Origin: Mycobacterium barrassiae
GTDB lineage: Bacteria > Actinomycetota > Actinomycetes > Mycobacteriales > Mycobacteriaceae
NCBI RefSeq assembly: GCF_025822765.1
Contig: NZ_JACKUK010000014.1
Location: 1-64,000 of the forward strand
Length of the DNA stretch: 64,000 nt
Direction: 5' to 3'
The stretch's first letter is position 1, and each line of letters starts with the position of its first letter. Below, one piece after another: positions 550 through 8,495 of the stretch. The translations under genes and the position numbers were made by a program. The notes below the pieces were generated by a model. The model was not told where the DNA came from. It saw only the letters and a program-made list of their open reading frames with translations, and ran no database searches.

Positions 550-3500
550 ATGGGCATCAAGGTGGCGCTGGAGCACCGCACCAGCTACACATTCGACCGA
601 CTGGTGCAGCTGCACCCCCACGTCGTTCGGCTTCGCCCTGCCCCGCATTCCCGGACCCCGATCGAGGCCTACTCGTTCGCCGTCGAACCGGCTGACCACT
701 TCATCAACTGGCAGCAGGACGCCTTCGGCAACTTCCTCGCCCGGCTGGTTTTCCCGAACCGGGCACGGAGCCTGACGATCACCGTCGGCCTGATCGCCGA
801 CATGAAGGTGATCAACCCGTTCGACTTCTTCATCGAGGAGTACGCCGAGAAGTTCGGCTTCACCTACCCGAAGTCGCTCGCCGAAGACCTCAAGCCTTAC
901 CTGCGCCCGGTCGACGAGAACGGCGAGGGCAGCGGGCCCGGTGACCTCGTCAAGGCGTGGGTGGCCAACTTCTCCGTCCCGCCGGAGACCCGCACCATCG
1001 ACTTCCTCGTCGCCCTCAACCGCGCCATCAACGCCGACGTGGGCTACAGCCTGCGAATGGAACCCGGCGTGCAGACGCCCGACTACACCCTGCGCACCGG
1101 AATCGGCTCGTGCCGCGACTCGGCCTGGTTGCTGGTGTCGATCCTGCGCCAGCTGGGGCTGGCCGCCCGCTTCGTGTCCGGCTACCTCGTCCAGCTCACC
1201 TCCGACGTCGAGGCGCTCGACGGACCCTCTGGCCCGGCCGCCGACTTCACCGACCTGCACGCATGGACCGAGGTGTACATCCCCGGCGCGGGCTGGATCG
1301 GCCTCGATCCGACGTCGGGCCTGTTCGCCGGTGAGGGCCACATCCCGCTGTCGGCGACCCCGCATCCGGAGTCCGCGGCACCCATCACCGGCGCCACCGA
1401 GCCGTGTGAGACGACGCTGGACTTCACCAACACCGTCACCCGGATCCACGAGGATCCCCGGGTCACGCTGCCCTACACCGAGGCCGCCTGGGGTGCCATC
1501 TGTGACCTGGGTGCCCGCATCGACGCACGGTTGGCCGCTGGCGATGTGCGCCTGACGATGGGCGGCGAGCCCACGTTCGTCTCGATCGACAACCAGGTCG
1601 ACCCCGAGTGGACCACCGACGCCGACGGGCCGCACAAACGCCAACTGGCATCCGCGCTCGCGGCCCGCTTGAAGAAGGCGTGGGCGCCGCAGGGCGTGAT
1701 TCACCGCAACCAGGGCAAGTGGTATCCGGGGGAACCGTTGCCGCGCTGGCAGATCGGACTGTTCTGGCGCACCGACGGCGGGCCGTTGTGGCGCGACGAC
1801 TCAATGTTGGCCGACCCGTGGCCGTCGACGCCGGAGACCATCGAGGTCGCGCCCGACGCGGGACTGCAGTTCCTCGGCGCCCTCGCCGACGACCTCGGCC
1901 TGCCTGCGTCGCAGGTTCGACCCGCCTACGAGGATGCGTTGAGCCGCCTGGCCGAAGCGACCCGTCTGCCGCAGGGCGAACCCGTCAGCGCGGCAGACGA
2001 TTTGGAGACCGACACCCCCGACGCGCGTGCTGCATTGATGGCGCGGTTGGACGAGTCCGTCACCGAACCCGCCGCGTATGTGTTGCCGTTGCACCGCACC
2101 GACGACGGGTCGGGATGGGCGAGCGCCGACTGGCGACTGCGGCGCGGACGGATTGTCCTGCTGGAGGGCGACTCCCCGGCCGGGCTGCGGCTGCCGCTGA
2201 AATCGATCAGCTGGCAACCGCCGGAGCCGACGCACGGGGCCGATCCGTTGACCCACCGCGGGACGCTGCCCGACGAACCCGGCGCCGACGATGCGGAGGT
2301 CGTGGAGGCCGACGCTATGCCGACCACCGCGGTCGTGGCCGAGATCCGCGACGGGCTGCTCTACATCTACCTGCCGCCGACCGAGGACGCCGAGCACTTC
2401 GTCGACCTGATTCACCGAGTGGAGGCCGCGGCGGCCAAGATTTCCTGCCCGGTGGTCCTCGAAGGCTACGGACCGCCGCCCGATCCACGGATCACGTCGA
2501 TGACCGTCACCCCCGACCCCGGGGTCATCGAGGTCAACGTCGCGCCCACGGGAAGCTTCGCCGAACAGCGGAAGCAGCTGGAAACCCTTTACAGCGAGGC
2601 CCGGCTCGCCCGGCTGTCGACCGAATCCTTCGACGTCGACGGCACTCACGGCGGCACCGGCGGCGGTAACCACATCACCCTCGGCGGCATCACCCCCGCG
2701 GATTCGCCGCTGCTGCGCCGTCCCGACCTGCTGGTGTCGATGCTGACGTACTGGCAGCGCCACCCGGCGCTGTCCTACCTGTTCTCGGGGCGGTTCATCG
2801 GCACGACGTCGCAGGCACCCCGGGTCGACGAGGGCCGCGCCGAGGCGCTGTACGAGCTCGAGATCGCGTTCGCCGAGATCGCGCGGCTGTCGGCGGGCGA
2901 GGGCGGGCCTCGCCCGTGGATCGTCGACCGGGCGTTGCGGCACCTGCTGACCGACATCACCGGAAACACCCACCGGGCCGAATTCTGCATCGACAAGCTG
3001 TACAGCCCCGATGGTCCCCGCGGCCGGCTGGGACTGCTGGAGCTGCGCGGGTTCGAGATGCCGCCGCACTACCAGATGGCGATGGTGCAGTCACTGCTGG
3101 TGCGGTCGCTGGTCGCATGGTTCTGGGACGAGCCGCTGCGGGCGCCGCTCATCCGCCACGGTGCGAACTTGCACGGTCGATATCTGTTGCCGCACTTCCT
3201 GATTCACGATATCGCCGACGTCGCCGCCGATCTGCGGGCGCACGGCATCGATTTCGAGACCAGCTGGCTGGACCCGTTCACCGAGTTCCGGTTCCCACGC
3301 ATCGGTACAGCGGTGTTCGACGGTGTCGAGATCGAGCTACGCGGGGCGATCGAACCGTGGAATGTGTTGGGGGAGGAGTCGACCGCGGGCGGGACGGCGC
3401 GCTATGTCGACTCGTCGGTCGAGCGCATCCAGGTCCGGCTCATCGGCGCCGACCGGCAGCGCTACATCGTCACCGCCAACGGCTATCCCGTGCCCTTGTT

Positions 3501-3867
3501 GGCCACCGACAATCCCGACGTTCAGGTGGGCGGGGTGAGATACCGGGCGTGGCAGCCCCCGAGCGCGTTGCATCCCACCATCACCGTCGACGGCCCGCTG
3601 CGCTTCGAGTTGGTCGACATCGCTTCGGGCATGTCGCGCGGCGGCTGTACGTACCACGTCTCACATCCCGGTGGGCGGTCCTACGACACCCCACCCGTCA
3701 ACGCCGTAGAGGCCGAATCGCGACGCGGCCGCCGTTTCGAGACCACCGGTTTCACCCCGGGCAAGGTAGACATGTCCGATATCCGGGAGAAGCAGGCGCG
3801 GCAATCCACTGACGTGGGCGCGCCGGGGATCTTGGATCTGCGCCGGGTGCGTACCGTTCTGCAGTGA
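550..3867 (+). CDS. Transglutaminase-like domain fused to DUF2126 (predicted circularly permuted GS-like amidoligase)
   Basis: A 1105-residue protein, full length for the family (Rv2566-like). Residues 1-100 form the beta-rich transglutaminase N-terminal domain. Residues about 150-260 are the papain-fold transglutaminase core with the complete triad: Cys188 (GSCRDSAW), His237 (DLHAW) and Asp253 (GLDPTSG). The remaining 800 residues are DUF2126, with conserved MGGEPTFV (Glu340), GGGNH (Asn707/His708) and LLELRGFEMPPH (Glu831, Arg833, Glu836). DUF2126 has been proposed from comparative genomics to be a circularly permuted glutamine-synthetase-like ligase. That is family knowledge, not shown here. 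No signal peptide or membrane segment is seen, so it is predicted cytoplasmic. The ATG at 550 matches the MxIKVALEHRTSYTFDRL start of homologues. It is first in an operon; its stop overlaps the next start. Confidence 0.9.
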   Translation: MGIKVALEHRTSYTFDRLVQLHPHVVRLRPAPHSRTPIEAYSFAVEPADHFINWQQDAFGNFLARLVFPNRARSLTITVGLIADMKVINPFDFFIEEYAEKFGFTYPKSLAEDLKPYLRPVDENGEGSGPGDLVKAWVANFSVPPETRTIDFLVALNRAINADVGYSLRMEPGVQTPDYTLRTGIGSCRDSAWLLVSILRQLGLAARFVSGYLVQLTSDVEALDGPSGPAADFTDLHAWTEVYIPGAGWIGLDPTSGLFAGEGHIPLSATPHPESAAPITGATEPCETTLDFTNTVTRIHEDPRVTLPYTEAAWGAICDLGARIDARLAAGDVRLTMGGEPTFVSIDNQVDPEWTTDADGPHKRQLASALAARLKKAWAPQGVIHRNQGKWYPGEPLPRWQIGLFWRTDGGPLWRDDSMLADPWPSTPETIEVAPDAGLQFLGALADDLGLPASQVRPAYEDALSRLAEATRLPQGEPVSAADDLETDTPDARAALMARLDESVTEPAAYVLPLHRTDDGSGWASADWRLRRGRIVLLEGDSPAGLRLPLKSISWQPPEPTHGADPLTHRGTLPDEPGADDAEVVEADAMPTTAVVAEIRDGLLYIYLPPTEDAEHFVDLIHRVEAAAAKISCPVVLEGYGPPPDPRITSMTVTPDPGVIEVNVAPTGSFAEQRKQLETLYSEARLARLSTESFDVDGTHGGTGGGNHITLGGITPADSPLLRRPDLLVSMLTYWQRHPALSYLFSGRFIGTTSQAPRVDEGRAEALYELEIAFAEIARLSAGEGGPRPWIVDRALRHLLTDITGNTHRAEFCIDKLYSPDGPRGRLGLLELRGFEMPPHYQMAMVQSLLVRSLVAWFWDEPLRAPLIRHGANLHGRYLLPHFLIHDIADVAADLRAHGIDFETSWLDPFTEFRFPRIGTAVFDGVEIELRGAIEPWNVLGEESTAGGTARYVDSSVERIQVRLIGADRQRYIVTANGYPVPLLATDNPDVQVGGVRYRAWQPPSALHPTITVDGPLRFELVDIASGMSRGGCTYHVSHPGGRSYDTPPVNAVEAESRRGRRFETTGFTPGKVDMSDIREKQARQSTDVGAPGILDLRRVRTVLQ

Positions 3868-6530
3868 TGGTCCTACCCGCAGCGAGTCCTCAGGACATCG
3901 ACAACCTGCTGTCCCGGTATCGCACCGCGCGAGCCCAGCAGGCGCTGTTCGACGTCCGCGGTGGGGCAGGTACGGGCTACGACGAATTCGTCGACGCCGC
4001 AGGCAATATCCGGCCGGCCTGGCAGGAGCTGGCCGAGTGTGTCGGCGAGCGCGGCCGCGGCGGCCTGGACCACCTGCGGTCGACGGTGCGCAGCCTGGTC
4101 GACAACGACGGCATCACCTACGTCCAGGTCGACCGCCACGGTGACGCCGTCACCAACGGCAGCGGGGCCGCGGAGCCCGGCCCGTGGCACCTCGATGCGC
4201 TGCCGCTGGTGATCTCCTCGGCTGACTGGGACATCCTGGAAGCCGGTCTGCTGCAACGCTCCCGGCTGCTCGACGCGATACTGACCGACCTCTACGGCCC
4301 GCGGATGTCGGTGACCAGCGGCGTGCTGCCCGCGCCGCTACTCTTCGCCCATCCCGGCTACATCCGCGCTGCGCGCGGTATCGAGGTGCCCGGCCGGCAC
4401 CAGCTTTTCATGCACGGCTGCGACATCAGCCGCACCCGCGACGGCAGCTTCCAGGTCAACGCCGACTGGACCCAGGCGCCGTCAGGGGCGGGTTATGCGC
4501 TCGCCGACCGCCGGGTGGTGGCGCACGCCATCCCCGACCTGTACGAACGCATCGGTCCCCGGCCGGCATCGCCATGGGCACAGGCGCTTCGGCTCGCGCT
4601 GATCGACGCCGCGCCCGAGTCCGCGGAGGAACCGGTCGTGGTGGTTCTCAGCCCCGGTATCCACTCGGAGACGGCCTTCGACCAGGCCTACATCGCCAGC
4701 GTGCTGGGCTTCCCGCTGGTGGAGAGCGCCGACCTGGTGGTGCGTGACGGCAAGCTGTGGATGCGGTCGATGGGCACGCTCAAGCGCGTCGACGTCGTGC
4801 TGCGCAGGGTGGACGCCGATTACGCGGATCCTCTTGACCTGCGGGCGGATTCGCGCCTCGGCGTCGTCGGGCTCGTCGAGGCGCTACGGCGCGGCGCGGT
4901 GACGGTGGTGAACACGCTGGGCAGCGGAATTCTGGAAAGCCCTGGGGTGCTTCGCTTTCTGCCCGAACTCGCCGAGCGGCTGCTGGGGGAGACGCCGCTG
5001 CTGCGCACCGCGCCGATGTACTGGGGCGGCATCAACACCGAACGGTCGCATCTGTTGAGTAACCTGGGGTCGCTGCTGATCCGTCCGGTCACGGGCGGCG
5101 ACACCATCGTCGGGCCGGCGTTGACCTCTGCGCAACGCAAGGAACTCGGCGTCCGTATCGAAGCGACGCCATGGCAGTGGGTCGGCCAGGAGTTGCCGGA
5201 GTTCTCGTCGGCGCCCAGCGACTATTACCCGGGCGGGCTGTCGGCGGCCAATGTGGGTATGCGGTTGTTCACCGTGTCGCAGCGAAGCGGTTACGCACCG
5301 ATGATCGGCGGGCTGGGCTATCTCGTCGCGGCCGGAAGTGCCGGATTCCGGCTGAATAGTGTTGCCGCGAAGGATATCTGGGTACGCACGCCGACGAGGG
5401 TGACCGCCGAGCGCATCCCCACCGCGCCGCCGATGGAGCTGCCCGCCATCACATCGAGCCCCACCGGAGCGGTCAGCTCTCCGCGTGTGCTGTCGGATCT
5501 GTTCTGGATGGGCCGCTACGCCGAGCGCGCGGAGAGCATGGCCAGGCTGCTCACCGTGACTCGCGAGCGCCATCACGAGTTCCGTTACCGCAGAGAGTTG
5601 GCGGGCAGCGAATGTGTGCCGGTGCTGCTCACCGCGCTCGGCTCGATCACCGGAACCGGATCGGGCGACGGTGATCACGACGATCTGGTGGCCACCGCGC
5701 CGACCACGCTGTGGTCGCTGACCGCCGATCGGCACCGCTCGGGCTCGCTCGCCCAGTCCGTCGAACGTCTCAGCCTCGCCGCCCGCGCCGTGCGCGACCA
5801 GATGTCCAACGACACCTGGATGGTGCTCGCGGCGGTCGAGCGCGCGCTGCTGCACCCCGAGGACCAGCCTTCTGTCCGGTCGACTGACGAGCCGCCGCAG
5901 TCCAAGGCCGAGGGTGACGCCTACCTGTCGTCCACAAGTAACCTCACGCTGGCGGGCATGCTCGCGCTGTCGGGGGTGGCCGCCGAGTCCATGGTCCACG
6001 ACGTCGGCTGGACGATGATGGACATCGGCAAACGCATCGAACGTGGGTTGGGGTTGACGGCGTTGCTGCGTGCGACCCTCACCACCGTCCGCAGTCCCGG
6101 CGCCGAGCAAACCATCACGGAGTCCACGCTGGTGGTGTGTGAGTCGTCGGTCATCTACCGCCGGCGCAATCCCGGCACGGTTAGTGTTGCTGCCGTGGCC
6201 GACCTGGTTCTGTTCGACGCGGAGAACCCGCGGTCGCTGGCCTACCAGCTCGAGCGGCTCCGCACCGGGCTGAAGGCGCTGCCGGGGTCGTCGGGCTCGT
6301 CACGGCCCGAACGGCTGGTCGACGAGATCATCACCCGACTGCGCCGCGTCGAACCTGCCGACCTCGAGGAGACCACGCCGGAAGGCCACCGTGCCGAGCT
6401 CAGCGCGTTGCTCGACGATGTTCACTCCGAGCTGCGCGAGCTGTCCGTGGTCATCACCGCGACGCATCTGTCGCTGCCGGGCGGCATGCAGCCGCTGTGG
6501 GGACCCGACGAGCGCCGAGTGATGCCGTGA
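3864..6530 (+). CDS. Circularly permuted ATP-grasp / alpha-E domain fusion protein
   Basis: An 888-residue protein corresponding to Rv2567. Residues about 60-510 are the circularly permuted ATP-grasp type 2 module (old DUF404/DUF407), predicted to activate a carboxylate with ATP and form an amide bond. Recognisable segments include FAHPGYIRAARGIE, LFMHGCDISRTRDG, LWMRSMG and VVNTLGSGI. From about residue 539 (SPRVLSDLFWMGRYAERAE) to the C-terminus is an all-helical alpha-E domain (old DUF403); in many bacteria the two modules are separate genes. The start is GTG at 3864 or ATG at 3867, overlapping the upstream stop. No secretion signal is seen. The substrate is unknown; the neighbours suggest it works with the DUF2126 ligase in making or attaching a peptide. 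The fusion is usual in mycobacteria. Confidence 0.9.
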   Translation: MMVLPAASPQDIDNLLSRYRTARAQQALFDVRGGAGTGYDEFVDAAGNIRPAWQELAECVGERGRGGLDHLRSTVRSLVDNDGITYVQVDRHGDAVTNGSGAAEPGPWHLDALPLVISSADWDILEAGLLQRSRLLDAILTDLYGPRMSVTSGVLPAPLLFAHPGYIRAARGIEVPGRHQLFMHGCDISRTRDGSFQVNADWTQAPSGAGYALADRRVVAHAIPDLYERIGPRPASPWAQALRLALIDAAPESAEEPVVVVLSPGIHSETAFDQAYIASVLGFPLVESADLVVRDGKLWMRSMGTLKRVDVVLRRVDADYADPLDLRADSRLGVVGLVEALRRGAVTVVNTLGSGILESPGVLRFLPELAERLLGETPLLRTAPMYWGGINTERSHLLSNLGSLLIRPVTGGDTIVGPALTSAQRKELGVRIEATPWQWVGQELPEFSSAPSDYYPGGLSAANVGMRLFTVSQRSGYAPMIGGLGYLVAAGSAGFRLNSVAAKDIWVRTPTRVTAERIPTAPPMELPAITSSPTGAVSSPRVLSDLFWMGRYAERAESMARLLTVTRERHHEFRYRRELAGSECVPVLLTALGSITGTGSGDGDHDDLVATAPTTLWSLTADRHRSGSLAQSVERLSLAARAVRDQMSNDTWMVLAAVERALLHPEDQPSVRSTDEPPQSKAEGDAYLSSTSNLTLAGMLALSGVAAESMVHDVGWTMMDIGKRIERGLGLTALLRATLTTVRSPGAEQTITESTLVVCESSVIYRRRNPGTVSVAAVADLVLFDAENPRSLAYQLERLRTGLKALPGSSGSSRPERLVDEIITRLRRVEPADLEETTPEGHRAELSALLDDVHSELRELSVVITATHLSLPGGMQPLWGPDERRVMP

Positions 6531-7459
6531 CGGCCTTCCCCGACGGGCCGACGCCCTCGGTATCGAGCCGGTGCTACCAGGTGGCGCACCGCACGGTCTA
6601 CCACTACTCGGATGTCGTGACCAGCAGTTACGGCCGCGGTTTCCTCACCCCGCGCGATTCCGCGCGTCAGCGCTGCCTGTCCCACGAGTTGATCATCGAA
6701 CCGGAGGCTGCCGACAGCTCGACCAGCCGCGACGTCTACGGCAACATCAGCTCGTATTTCCATGTCACCGAGCGCCACCGGACCCTGTCGATCACCAGCA
6801 GGTCGGTGGTCGAAGTCGACCCGCCACCCGCGGACCTCTACGAGGGCGGCTCGGCGCGGGCACCGTGGGAGATCGCCAGGCCGGTCGGCACCGACGGCGC
6901 CCTGGCCACAGAGTTCACCCTGGATCTGCGACCGCCCGAGATCACCGACGAGGTACGTGAGTACGCCGCACCGAGCTTCGTTCCGGAGCGCCCACTGATC
7001 GAGGTGCTGCGCGATCTGTCGTCGCGCATCTTCAACGACTTCACCTACCGGTCCGGCTCTACGACGGTGTCTACTCAGGTGAGCGAGGTTTTGGCCGCGC
7101 GAGAGGGGGTATGTCAGGACTTCGCGCGGCTGGCGATCGCCTGCCTGCGTGCCAATGGGTTGGCTGCCAGCTACGTGTCCGGGTACTTGGCGACCGACCC
7201 GCCGCCCGGAAAGGAACGAATGGTGGGCATCGACGCCACCCACGCGTGGGCATCGGTATGGACGCCGCAGAACCAGTGGCTCGGTTTCGATCCCACCAAC
7301 GACCAGATGGTCGACGAACGCTACATCACCGTCGGATTCGGCCGCGACTACGCCGATGTGCCGCCGCTGCGCGGCATCATCTACACCGACTCCGAGAGCA
7401 GTGTGATCGATGTCGCGGTCGACGTCGCACCGTATGAGGGTGGCGTTTTAAATGCGTGA
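6527..7459 (+). CDS. Transglutaminase family protein (cysteine-protease-like)
   Basis: A 310-residue stand-alone transglutaminase-like protein (Rv2569c-like). The N-terminal about 150 residues are the beta-sandwich Transglut_N domain (RTVYHYSDVVTSSYGRG...). The core then carries a complete triad: Cys196 in GVCQDFARL, His239 in THAWASVW and Asp255 in GFDPTND. Bacterial members of this group are thought to act as peptidases or amidotransferases rather than protein cross-linkers. I use GTG 6527, which overlaps the previous stop by 4 nt (GTGA); an in-frame ATG 30 nt upstream lies inside the preceding gene. Third in the operon, it overlaps the next gene by 8 nt. In M. tuberculosis the counterpart lies on the opposite strand to Rv2566/Rv2567; here all four genes are co-directional. 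Confidence 0.88.
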   Translation: MTAFPDGPTPSVSSRCYQVAHRTVYHYSDVVTSSYGRGFLTPRDSARQRCLSHELIIEPEAADSSTSRDVYGNISSYFHVTERHRTLSITSRSVVEVDPPPADLYEGGSARAPWEIARPVGTDGALATEFTLDLRPPEITDEVREYAAPSFVPERPLIEVLRDLSSRIFNDFTYRSGSTTVSTQVSEVLAAREGVCQDFARLAIACLRANGLAASYVSGYLATDPPPGKERMVGIDATHAWASVWTPQNQWLGFDPTNDQMVDERYITVGFGRDYADVPPLRGIIYTDSESSVIDVAVDVAPYEGGVLNA

Positions 7460-8495
7460 CTTCACCTGCCCGAACTGCGGTCAGCGGTTGGCGTTCGAGA
7501 ACTCGCTTTGCCTGTCGTGCGGAAGTTCGTTGGGGTTCTCGCTAGAAGATATGGCGCTGTTGGTCATCGCACCCGACGACGAAAGCGACCATGCGGGTGC
7601 GGTGCCGTCCAGCGATTACCAGCTGTGCGCGAATCTATACGCCGCCCAGTGCAACTGGCTGGTCAAACGATCCCCGACGCGCCAGCTGTGCACGTCGTGC
7701 GCACTGACGCGGACGCGGCCCAACGACGCCGACACCAAGGCCATGGCGGCGTTCGCCGAAGCCGAGAAGGCCAAGCGCCGACTCATCGCCCAGCTGCACG
7801 AAATGAAGCTGCCCATCATCGGTCGTGACGAGGACCCTCAGTTCGGTCTCGCATTCGACCTGCTGTCCAGCGAGAACGAGAAGGTGTTCACCGGCCACGA
7901 GAACGGCGTGATCACACTCGATCTCGCCGAGGGCGACGACGTGCACCGCGAGCAGCTGCGGGTGTCGATGGAGGAGCCTTATCGCACGCTGCTCGGTCAT
8001 TTCCGGCACGAGATCGGGCATTACTACTACTACCGGCTGGTCGACCCGTCACCGGACTACAAGGCCCGGTTCCACGAGCTGTACGGCGACGCCGACGCCG
8101 ACTACCAGGCCGCGCTGGACCGGCACTACAGCGAGGGGCCTCCGACCGAATGGCAGAAGGACTACGTCTCCTCCTACGCCACGATGCACCCCGCCGAGGA
8201 CTGGGCCGAGACGTTCGCGCATTACCTTCACATCCGCGACACCTTGGACACCGCCGCGGCGTTCGGTCTGGCTCCGGCCAGCGCCACGTTCGAGCGGCGG
8301 GTGTTGGGCCCCAGCGGATTCGACACGACCATCGATATCTGGCTTCCGCTGACCTGGGCGCTGAACATGATCAACCGGTCGATGGGCAAGGACGATCTCT
8401 ACCCGTTCGTGCTGCCGGCGAAGGTGCTGGACAAGATGCGCCTGGTGCACACGATCATCGACGAGATCGTCTCGGACCCCGCGAAAGCCAGGTGA
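7452..8495 (+). CDS. Zinc-binding metallopeptidase with N-terminal zinc ribbon
   Basis: A 347-residue protein (Rv2568c-like). A zinc ribbon occupies the N-terminus with Cys6, Cys9, Cys20 and Cys23, and a second Cys cluster lies near residues 57-80 (AQCNWLV, LCTSCA). The peptidase motif is HEIGH (His186, Glu187, His190) followed by YYYYRL, with Glu249 or Glu253 in the HPAEDWAETFAHYLH segment as candidate third ligand or support. This is the pattern of the family annotated as putative zinc-binding metallopeptidase. The ATG at 7452 lies 8 nt inside the upstream gene, implying translational coupling. By context it may trim or remove whatever the ligases build; that is inference. No transmembrane segment is apparent. 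It is last gene of the operon and faces a convergent SDR gene 10 nt away. Confidence 0.85.
   Translation: MRDFTCPNCGQRLAFENSLCLSCGSSLGFSLEDMALLVIAPDDESDHAGAVPSSDYQLCANLYAAQCNWLVKRSPTRQLCTSCALTRTRPNDADTKAMAAFAEAEKAKRRLIAQLHEMKLPIIGRDEDPQFGLAFDLLSSENEKVFTGHENGVITLDLAEGDDVHREQLRVSMEEPYRTLLGHFRHEIGHYYYYRLVDPSPDYKARFHELYGDADADYQAALDRHYSEGPPTEWQKDYVSSYATMHPAEDWAETFAHYLHIRDTLDTAAAFGLAPASATFERRVLGPSGFDTTIDIWLPLTWALNMINRSMGKDDLYPFVLPAKVLDKMRLVHTIIDEIVSDPAKAR

What the first reader, a model, noticed from the sequence alone, without database searches (positions are those of the whole stretch)
550..8495. Compact four-gene transglutaminase / ligase / metallopeptidase operon: a possible peptide-tagging or peptide-synthesis system
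Four overlapping co-directional genes encode a transglutaminase-DUF2126 fusion, a circularly permuted ATP-grasp/alpha-E fusion, a stand-alone transglutaminase and an HEIGH metallopeptidase. Published comparative genomics (Iyer, Aravind and co-workers) predicted that permuted ATP-grasp plus permuted GS-like ligases with alpha-E domains form a peptide-tagging or peptide-synthesis pathway. Both papain-fold triads and the HExxH motif are intact here. Two ligases and three peptidase-like domains in one coupled unit suggest a make-and-remove cycle. No substrate or product is known.
Basis: partly seen in the sequence, partly recalled or inferred. Interest (0 to 1): 0.8.

Follow-up and report, generated by a model that had tools for sequence, protein, structure and literature searches.

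The report
Half of a two-locus peptide-ligase system
A mycobacterial four-gene operon, predicted to join and cut peptide-like bonds, looks like only one half of its system: its ATP-grasp ligase seems to be a dead copy, and an intact copy sits elsewhere in the same genome.

Summary
The operon is real: TG-DUF2126, CP-ATP-grasp/alpha-E fusion, stand-alone TG, and zinc-ribbon/Peptidase_Mx. It recurs in the genus and, varied, in other phyla. The general idea, a peptide-ligation/hydrolysis pathway, is already in print. 'Two ligases in one unit' is not supported: gene 2's ATP-grasp belongs to a class in which 48 of 48 sampled rows keep at most 2 of 6 residues that 41 of 41 intact-class rows keep, yet it is under purifying selection. 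An intact ATP-grasp with its own alpha-E and TG lies at contig C37; intact-class copies occur in 54 of 56 DUF2126 genomes examined. TG triads and HExxH are invariant in all sampled copies. DUF2126 models with a glutamine-synthetase-like fold (modest scores). Sampled Actinomycetota mostly carry Peptidase_Mx, many Pseudomonadota Anbu. Published data tie proteobacterial relatives to nitrogen control; no such signal was found in mycobacteria. Best reading: accessory module, built around a pseudo-ATP-grasp, of a split amide-ligation/hydrolysis cycle. Substrate unknown.

The parts
550..3867 (+). Gene 1: TG-DUF2126 fusion, 1105 aa
   Evidence: DUF2126 in 6 of 119 sampled genomes of the phylum
568..1401 (+). 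Transglutaminase-like (papain-fold) domain; triad Cys188/His237/Asp253
   Evidence: triad invariant in 86 of 86 rows; end set at the start of DUF2126
1402..3846 (+). DUF2126, predicted GS-superfamily carboxylate-amine ligase
   Evidence: Pfam, profile range; AlphaFold model; fold matches to GS, GMAS, YbdK, Dop
3864..6530 (+). Gene 2: circularly permuted ATP-grasp fused to alpha-E, 888 aa; predicted pseudo-ATP-grasp
4182..5318 (+). CP-ATP-grasp domain (residues 107-485)
   Evidence: profile hit; 217-bit match to 3n6x
4461..4469 (+). Ala200-Asp201-Trp202, where all 41 intact-class rows have Glu-Asp-Asn
4941..4943 (+). Pro360, where all 41 intact-class rows have Lys
5082..5102 (+). Degenerate Lys/Gly-rich loop (residues 407-413, RPVTGGD; KxxxxSGGYG-type in the intact class)
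5256..5258 (+). Gly465, where all 41 intact-class rows have Asp (RHxDLRPF motif)
5481..6464 (+). Alpha-E domain; conserved W548, R551, E554, R555 and E726-R727
   Evidence: conserved in fused and unfused copies; helical model pLDDT 91.5
6497..7459 (+). Gene 3: stand-alone transglutaminase-like protein; triad Cys206/His249/Asp265; no obvious signal peptide (by eye)
   Evidence: triad 81 of 81
7452..8495 (+). Gene 4: N-terminal zinc ribbon + Peptidase_Mx metallopeptidase
8007..8021 (+). HEIGH zinc-binding motif (186-190); invariant Glu249, Asp250, Glu253 downstream
   Evidence: 37 of 37 rows

Best explanation
The window operon is the accessory module of a widespread cytosolic amide-bond-making and amide-bond-cutting system that in mycobacteria is split over two loci. 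Ligation is done by the intact circularly permuted ATP-grasp at the second locus (C37, next to its own alpha-E and TG genes) and by the GS-superfamily DUF2126 domain of gene 1. Each would activate a carboxylate as an acyl phosphate and join it to an amine (inferred). The ATP-grasp half of gene 2 has lost the presumed ATP/Mg-site residues and most likely acts as a pseudoenzyme: a substrate-holding or regulatory partner that carries an alpha-E adaptor domain (inferred). The two papain-type Cys-His-Asp domains and the zinc peptidase Mx cut or transfer the product, so the bond is reversible, by analogy with ligase/amidase pairs such as glutathionylspermidine synthetase/amidase (inferred). In some proteobacteria relatives are under nitrogen control (published); for mycobacteria this is not shown. 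Shown here: gene content, conservation, residue loss in the fused ATP-grasp, presence of the intact paralogue, invariant hydrolase sites, GS-like fold of the DUF2126 model. Not shown: any activity, the substrate, cytosolic location, or physical association of the two loci's products.
Confidence: 0.6

Rival explanations
1. The operon is a self-contained two-ligase peptide-tagging unit: the fused ATP-grasp is active through a different set of residues.
For: CP_ATPgrasp Pfam scores are high; fold-core residues (R132, D142, Y144, R314, R315, D322, G353) persist in 92-100% of fused rows; the domain is under purifying selection.
Against: Glu and Asn lost in 48 of 48, Lys284-column in 48 of 48 and Asp405-column in 48 of 48 fused rows; an intact-class paralogue in 54 of 56 genomes.
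Confidence: 0.15
2. The operon breaks down or scavenges an amide/peptide nitrogen source: conjugation makes an activated intermediate (as in gamma-glutamylation of amines by PuuA or GMAS-type GS homologues, recalled), and the hydrolases release the nitrogen.
For: NtrC/sigma54 and nitrogen control of proteobacterial relatives; association of DUF403/404/407 and Bact_transglu_N with urea-metabolism domains in marine metagenomes (PMC3597751, passages); sigma54-like sites: strict 4 of 64 first-gene upstreams against 2 of 499 background ORFs, relaxed 6 of 20 intact-ATP-grasp-first against 15 of 499 (the 20-gene subset was chosen afterwards); GMAS among the fold matches.
Against: No nitrogen-type box stands out in mycobacteria. 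Of the recurrent neighbour families only eight representatives were run against Pfam; one is an ABC-transporter ATPase family in 10 loci, too common a type to weigh either way, and no amine oxidase was among them.
Confidence: 0.25
3. Gene 3 and its mycobacterial orthologues are secreted serine proteases, and the operon serves proteolysis outside the cell.
For: PMC11081392 reports protease activity and cell-wall association for the M. tuberculosis protein Rv2569c (abstract and passages).
Against: Gene 3 is a papain-fold TG with invariant Cys-His-Asp (81 of 81) and no obvious signal peptide (by eye). The reported insensitivity to E-64 and N-ethylmaleimide does not fit a Cys nucleophile and could reflect a contaminating protease (inference). 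That Rv2569c is the orthologue of gene 3 rests on recalled synteny.
Confidence: 0.05

Closest known systems
Predicted peptide-tagging/peptide-synthesis system of Iyer, Aravind and co-workers 2009 (PMC3268129 not held; content recalled, and as cited in PMC6376114 and PMC5666114, passages)
   Same: Permuted ATP-grasp, GS-like ligase, alpha-E, TG-like papain-fold protein and a peptidase in one neighbourhood
   Different: In the window the ATP-grasp is the fused, residue-depleted paralogue; the intact ligase is at another locus; the peptidase is Peptidase_Mx, not Anbu
Rv2566-type family (Iyer et al. 2008, PMC2588565, passage)
   Same: Gene 1 has the same make-up, N-terminal TG-like papain fold + C-terminal carboxylate-amine ligase; Rv2566 is the example named there
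   Different: The ATP-grasp, TG and peptidase neighbours do not appear in the passage seen
Anbu operon (PMC6376114, PMC5666114, passages)
   Same: ATP-grasp, alpha-E, TG; the Yersinia ATP-grasp releases phosphate from ATP
   Different: No Anbu match in this genome; the window has DUF2126 and Mx instead
Glutathionylspermidine synthetase/amidase (E. coli Gss; function recalled, annotation)
   Same: ATP-grasp ligase paired with a papain-like amidase; motif-level match of the ATP/Mg residues to the intact paralogue
   Different: No profile similarity found; ligase and amidase are separate proteins, and the window ATP-grasp lacks those residues
PafA/Dop pupylation enzymes
   Same: Dop is among the top Foldseek rows for the DUF2126 model (7oyh rank 6, E 0.058)
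   Different: Match weak; no Pup-like ORF was looked for here; Iyer et al. 2008 report no such small conserved ORF

Membership tests
Permuted ATP-grasp / GS-like / alpha-E system (Iyer 2009, features recalled) | GS-superfamily ligase domain | tested here: met
   Pfam DUF2126 and predicted-fold matches to GS, YbdK, GMAS (modest scores). Permutation itself not tested
Permuted ATP-grasp / GS-like / alpha-E system (Iyer 2009, features recalled) | Catalytically competent circularly permuted ATP-grasp in the operon | tested here: not met
   By sequence: window copy keeps 1 of 6 diagnostic residues; an intact copy exists at C37. Activity itself not testable here
Permuted ATP-grasp / GS-like / alpha-E system (Iyer 2009, features recalled) | Alpha-E domain | tested here: met
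   PF04168; conserved ER motifs
Permuted ATP-grasp / GS-like / alpha-E system (Iyer 2009, features recalled) | NTN-hydrolase peptidase (Anbu) | tested here: not met
   No Anbu match in G000; Peptidase_Mx instead
Anbu operon | ATP-grasp, alpha-E, TG and Anbu adjacent | tested here: not met
   Window has no Anbu; C37 has ATP-grasp, alpha-E and TG
Rv2566-type TG-ligase family | N-terminal TG-like papain fold fused to a carboxylate-amine ligase domain | tested here: met
   Domain order by Pfam, triad 86 of 86, GS-like fold
Pupylation | Pup-like small protein partner | not tested
   Iyer et al. 2008 state that none is encoded nearby

The most novel reading that the evidence does not exclude
Gene 2 belongs to a clade of conserved pseudo-ATP-grasp/alpha-E proteins that serve as dedicated partners or regulators of an intact ATP-grasp encoded elsewhere. 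Together with the GS-like TG-DUF2126 ligase they run a reversible peptide- or amide-conjugation cycle tied to nitrogen starvation, in which Actinomycetota use a zinc peptidase (Mx) where many Pseudomonadota use the proteasome-like Anbu.
Probability: 0.25. Interest if true: 0.75.

Novelty: new variant of a known kind. Interest (0 to 1): 0.5.

Why it matters
The predicted pathway is widespread and I know of no product for it. Showing that the mycobacterial operon is only half of it, that its ATP-grasp is probably non-catalytic, and that an intact ligase lies at a named second locus tells experimenters which protein to assay, which two loci to delete together, and which growth condition (nitrogen starvation) to try first.

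Full report
What is there. The four ORFs are as described: 550-3867, 3864-6530, 6497-7459 and 7452-8495, all + strand and overlapping. Pfam gives TG-like N and core domains plus DUF2126; CP_ATPgrasp_1/2 plus Alpha-E; TG-like N and core; zinc ribbon plus Peptidase_Mx. Upstream, a divergent gene with a YjbR match below cut-off lies 52 bases away if it starts at 497. Downstream, an SDR gene is convergent. The window is the start of contig C14 of a 5.9-Mb genome. The nearest named relatives are Mycolicibacterium; M. stellerae TG-DUF2126 is 85% identical.

Conservation. The whole set recurs in the three other genomes of the genus in the phylum sample, G038, G071 and G093. Of the 51 loci with at least 8 kb on both sides, 50 hold a CP-ATP-grasp, 43 a fused ATP-grasp/alpha-E, 43 a further TG, 21 an unfused ATP-grasp, 23 Mx and 13 Anbu. 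Among the 15 mycobacterial ones the counts are 15 for fused, TG and Mx, and 0 for the unfused ATP-grasp. The unfused set (TG, alpha-E, ATP-grasp) is at another place in the same genome, C37:38179-41707 (L019:8180-11708), and likewise in G038, G071 and G093. In seven sampled mycobacterial loci (L016, L033, L035, L037-L040) the TG-Mx pair is inverted relative to the first two genes.

The ATP-grasp in the window looks dead. In a tree of 89 ATP-grasp domains the unfused class forms one clade (support 99) and 46 fused rows another (93); two long-branched fused rows of family f26 fall outside both and their place is unsure; one alpha-E-fused protein, L088_7485, sits inside the unfused class and was counted there. 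Residues found in all 41 intact-class rows are lost in the fused class: Glu and Asn of LEDNxRxPSG (Ala200, Trp202 in the window), Lys of GDDK/ADDK (Pro360), the Gly-rich loop after the second Lys (Arg407...), and Asp of RHxDLRPF (Gly465). Scoring six residues gives 6 of 6 in 41 of 41 intact-class rows, and 2, 1 or 0 of 6 in 19, 17 and 12 of 48 fused-class rows; the window keeps one, a Gly. The second Lys survives as Lys in 31 of 48 and the Gly in 24 of 48. The solved relative 3n6x has the intact forms. In E. coli Gss a like motif context holds R316-x-D318, E330-x-N332, K498 and K533 (letters read). That these bind Mg and ATP is recalled, and the correspondence is by eye, not by a profile match. 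The fused ATP-grasp is still constrained: dN/dS 0.09-0.22 against eight mycobacterial orthologues, 0.12-0.22 for the unfused one against three. The core ER motifs of alpha-E are kept in both classes.

Dependence on the intact ligase. The DNA pattern for EDNxRxPSG occurs in 54 of 56 DUF2126-bearing genomes examined and in none when read backwards; in this genome its single site is C37:41109-41134. A profile search of the same 56 genomes confirms it: the same 54 have a match of 658 bits or more, and every other match scores 459 bits or less. Forty-four genomes have both kinds of match, 10 only the high-scoring kind and 2 (G125, G159) only the low-scoring kind; those 12 are all MAGs, so both kinds of absence may be incompleteness. 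In the 119-genome phylum sample the signature occurs in 23 genomes, including all 6 with DUF2126, so in 17 of the 113 others. So the intact ATP-grasp often occurs without DUF2126, but DUF2126 was hardly found without it.

Hydrolases. The Cys-His-Asp triads are invariant in 86 of 86 TG-DUF2126 and 81 of 81 other TG rows, and the H-E-H of HExxH in 37 of 37 Mx rows. In the 119-genome sample Mx over cut-off is in 7 genomes, 6 of them the DUF2126 genomes. Of 51 DUF2126 genomes, 24 have Anbu and 16 a full-length Mx match, 2 both, 13 neither; among the 15 Actinomycetota, 11 have Mx and none Anbu. An Anbu does occur in one Actinomycetota genome without DUF2126 (G100). The Anbu family was recognised from its sequence (recalled signature), not by Pfam, which gave no match. 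The Mx/Anbu exclusion is not significant within the non-actinobacterial genomes (p 0.31).

Regulation. Published passages: four adjacent B. cenocepacia genes (DUF404/407, DUF403, TG, large TG) change by log2 -8.2, -9.4, -9.4 and -6.0 in an ntrC mutant under nitrogen limitation (PMC5491218); that the large protein is TG-DUF2126 is my inference. P. putida PP_2685 and PP_2688 rise by log2 4.44 and 3.99 on nitrate against ammonium (PMC8050072), and PP2685-2687 by 11.1, 6.6 and 7.1 in the first column of a nutrient-limitation table (N vs C by its footnote; PMC3325844). The domains associate with urea metabolism in marine metagenomes (PMC3597751). In the 37 fetched proteobacterial loci a strict sigma54-like site is upstream of 4 of 64 first genes against 2 of 499 background ORFs, and a relaxed site upstream of 6 of 20 intact-ATP-grasp-first genes against 15 of 499. 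In mycobacteria a strict GlnR-like box was found in 1 of 31 upstream regions, background 7 of 755.

Interpretation. The pathway class is known as a prediction (Iyer et al. 2008, passage; Iyer et al. 2009, not held, recalled). What this work adds is that the window holds the accessory half, with a probable pseudo-ATP-grasp and a zinc peptidase in place of Anbu, and that an intact ATP-grasp is at a second locus. Chemistry and substrate remain inferred. I did not see the residue loss described in what I could search, but the main earlier paper was not readable here, so priority is open.

Noticed in passing
gene 3, 6497-7459 (orthologue class of M. tuberculosis Rv2569c, by recalled synteny): PMC11081392 calls Rv2569c a cell-wall-associated serine protease insensitive to E-64 and N-ethylmaleimide; the family here is a TG-like papain fold with an invariant Cys (81 of 81), which does not fit.
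   Followed up: partly
L016, L033, L035, L037-L040: TG and Mx genes lie convergent to TG-DUF2126/ATP-grasp, unlike the co-directional layout of the window.
   Followed up: partly
G000:C44:19252-19983 (L117): A second Peptidase_Mx gene in the same genome, with no other core gene found within the 15 kb fetched.
   Followed up: no
L138:2748-5342 (G119, M. stellerae): A third, divergent CP-ATP-grasp in an 864-aa frame with all six diagnostic residues and no alpha-E; the first 450 residues were not identified.
   Followed up: partly
L017:12856-15081 and L018:2585-4810: Very divergent 741-aa fused ATP-grasp/alpha-E proteins; L018 is gapped across the C-terminal Lys and Gly-loop columns, as if further reduced.
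   Followed up: no
L058, L060, L066, L070, L072, L081, L089: A citrate synthase gene follows TG-DUF2126 in these Methylococcales loci (Pfam run on L089 only, the others by clustering).
   Followed up: no
L069:8710-9969 and 8 other loci: A conserved protein of about 420 aa without a Pfam match recurs beside TG-DUF2126 in methylotrophs and other proteobacteria.
   Followed up: no
alpha-E model m5dddcf231b29: Weak fold resemblance to the nitrate-sensing antiterminator NasR (Foldseek probability 0.97-0.98, E 0.14-0.18); may be noise.
   Followed up: no
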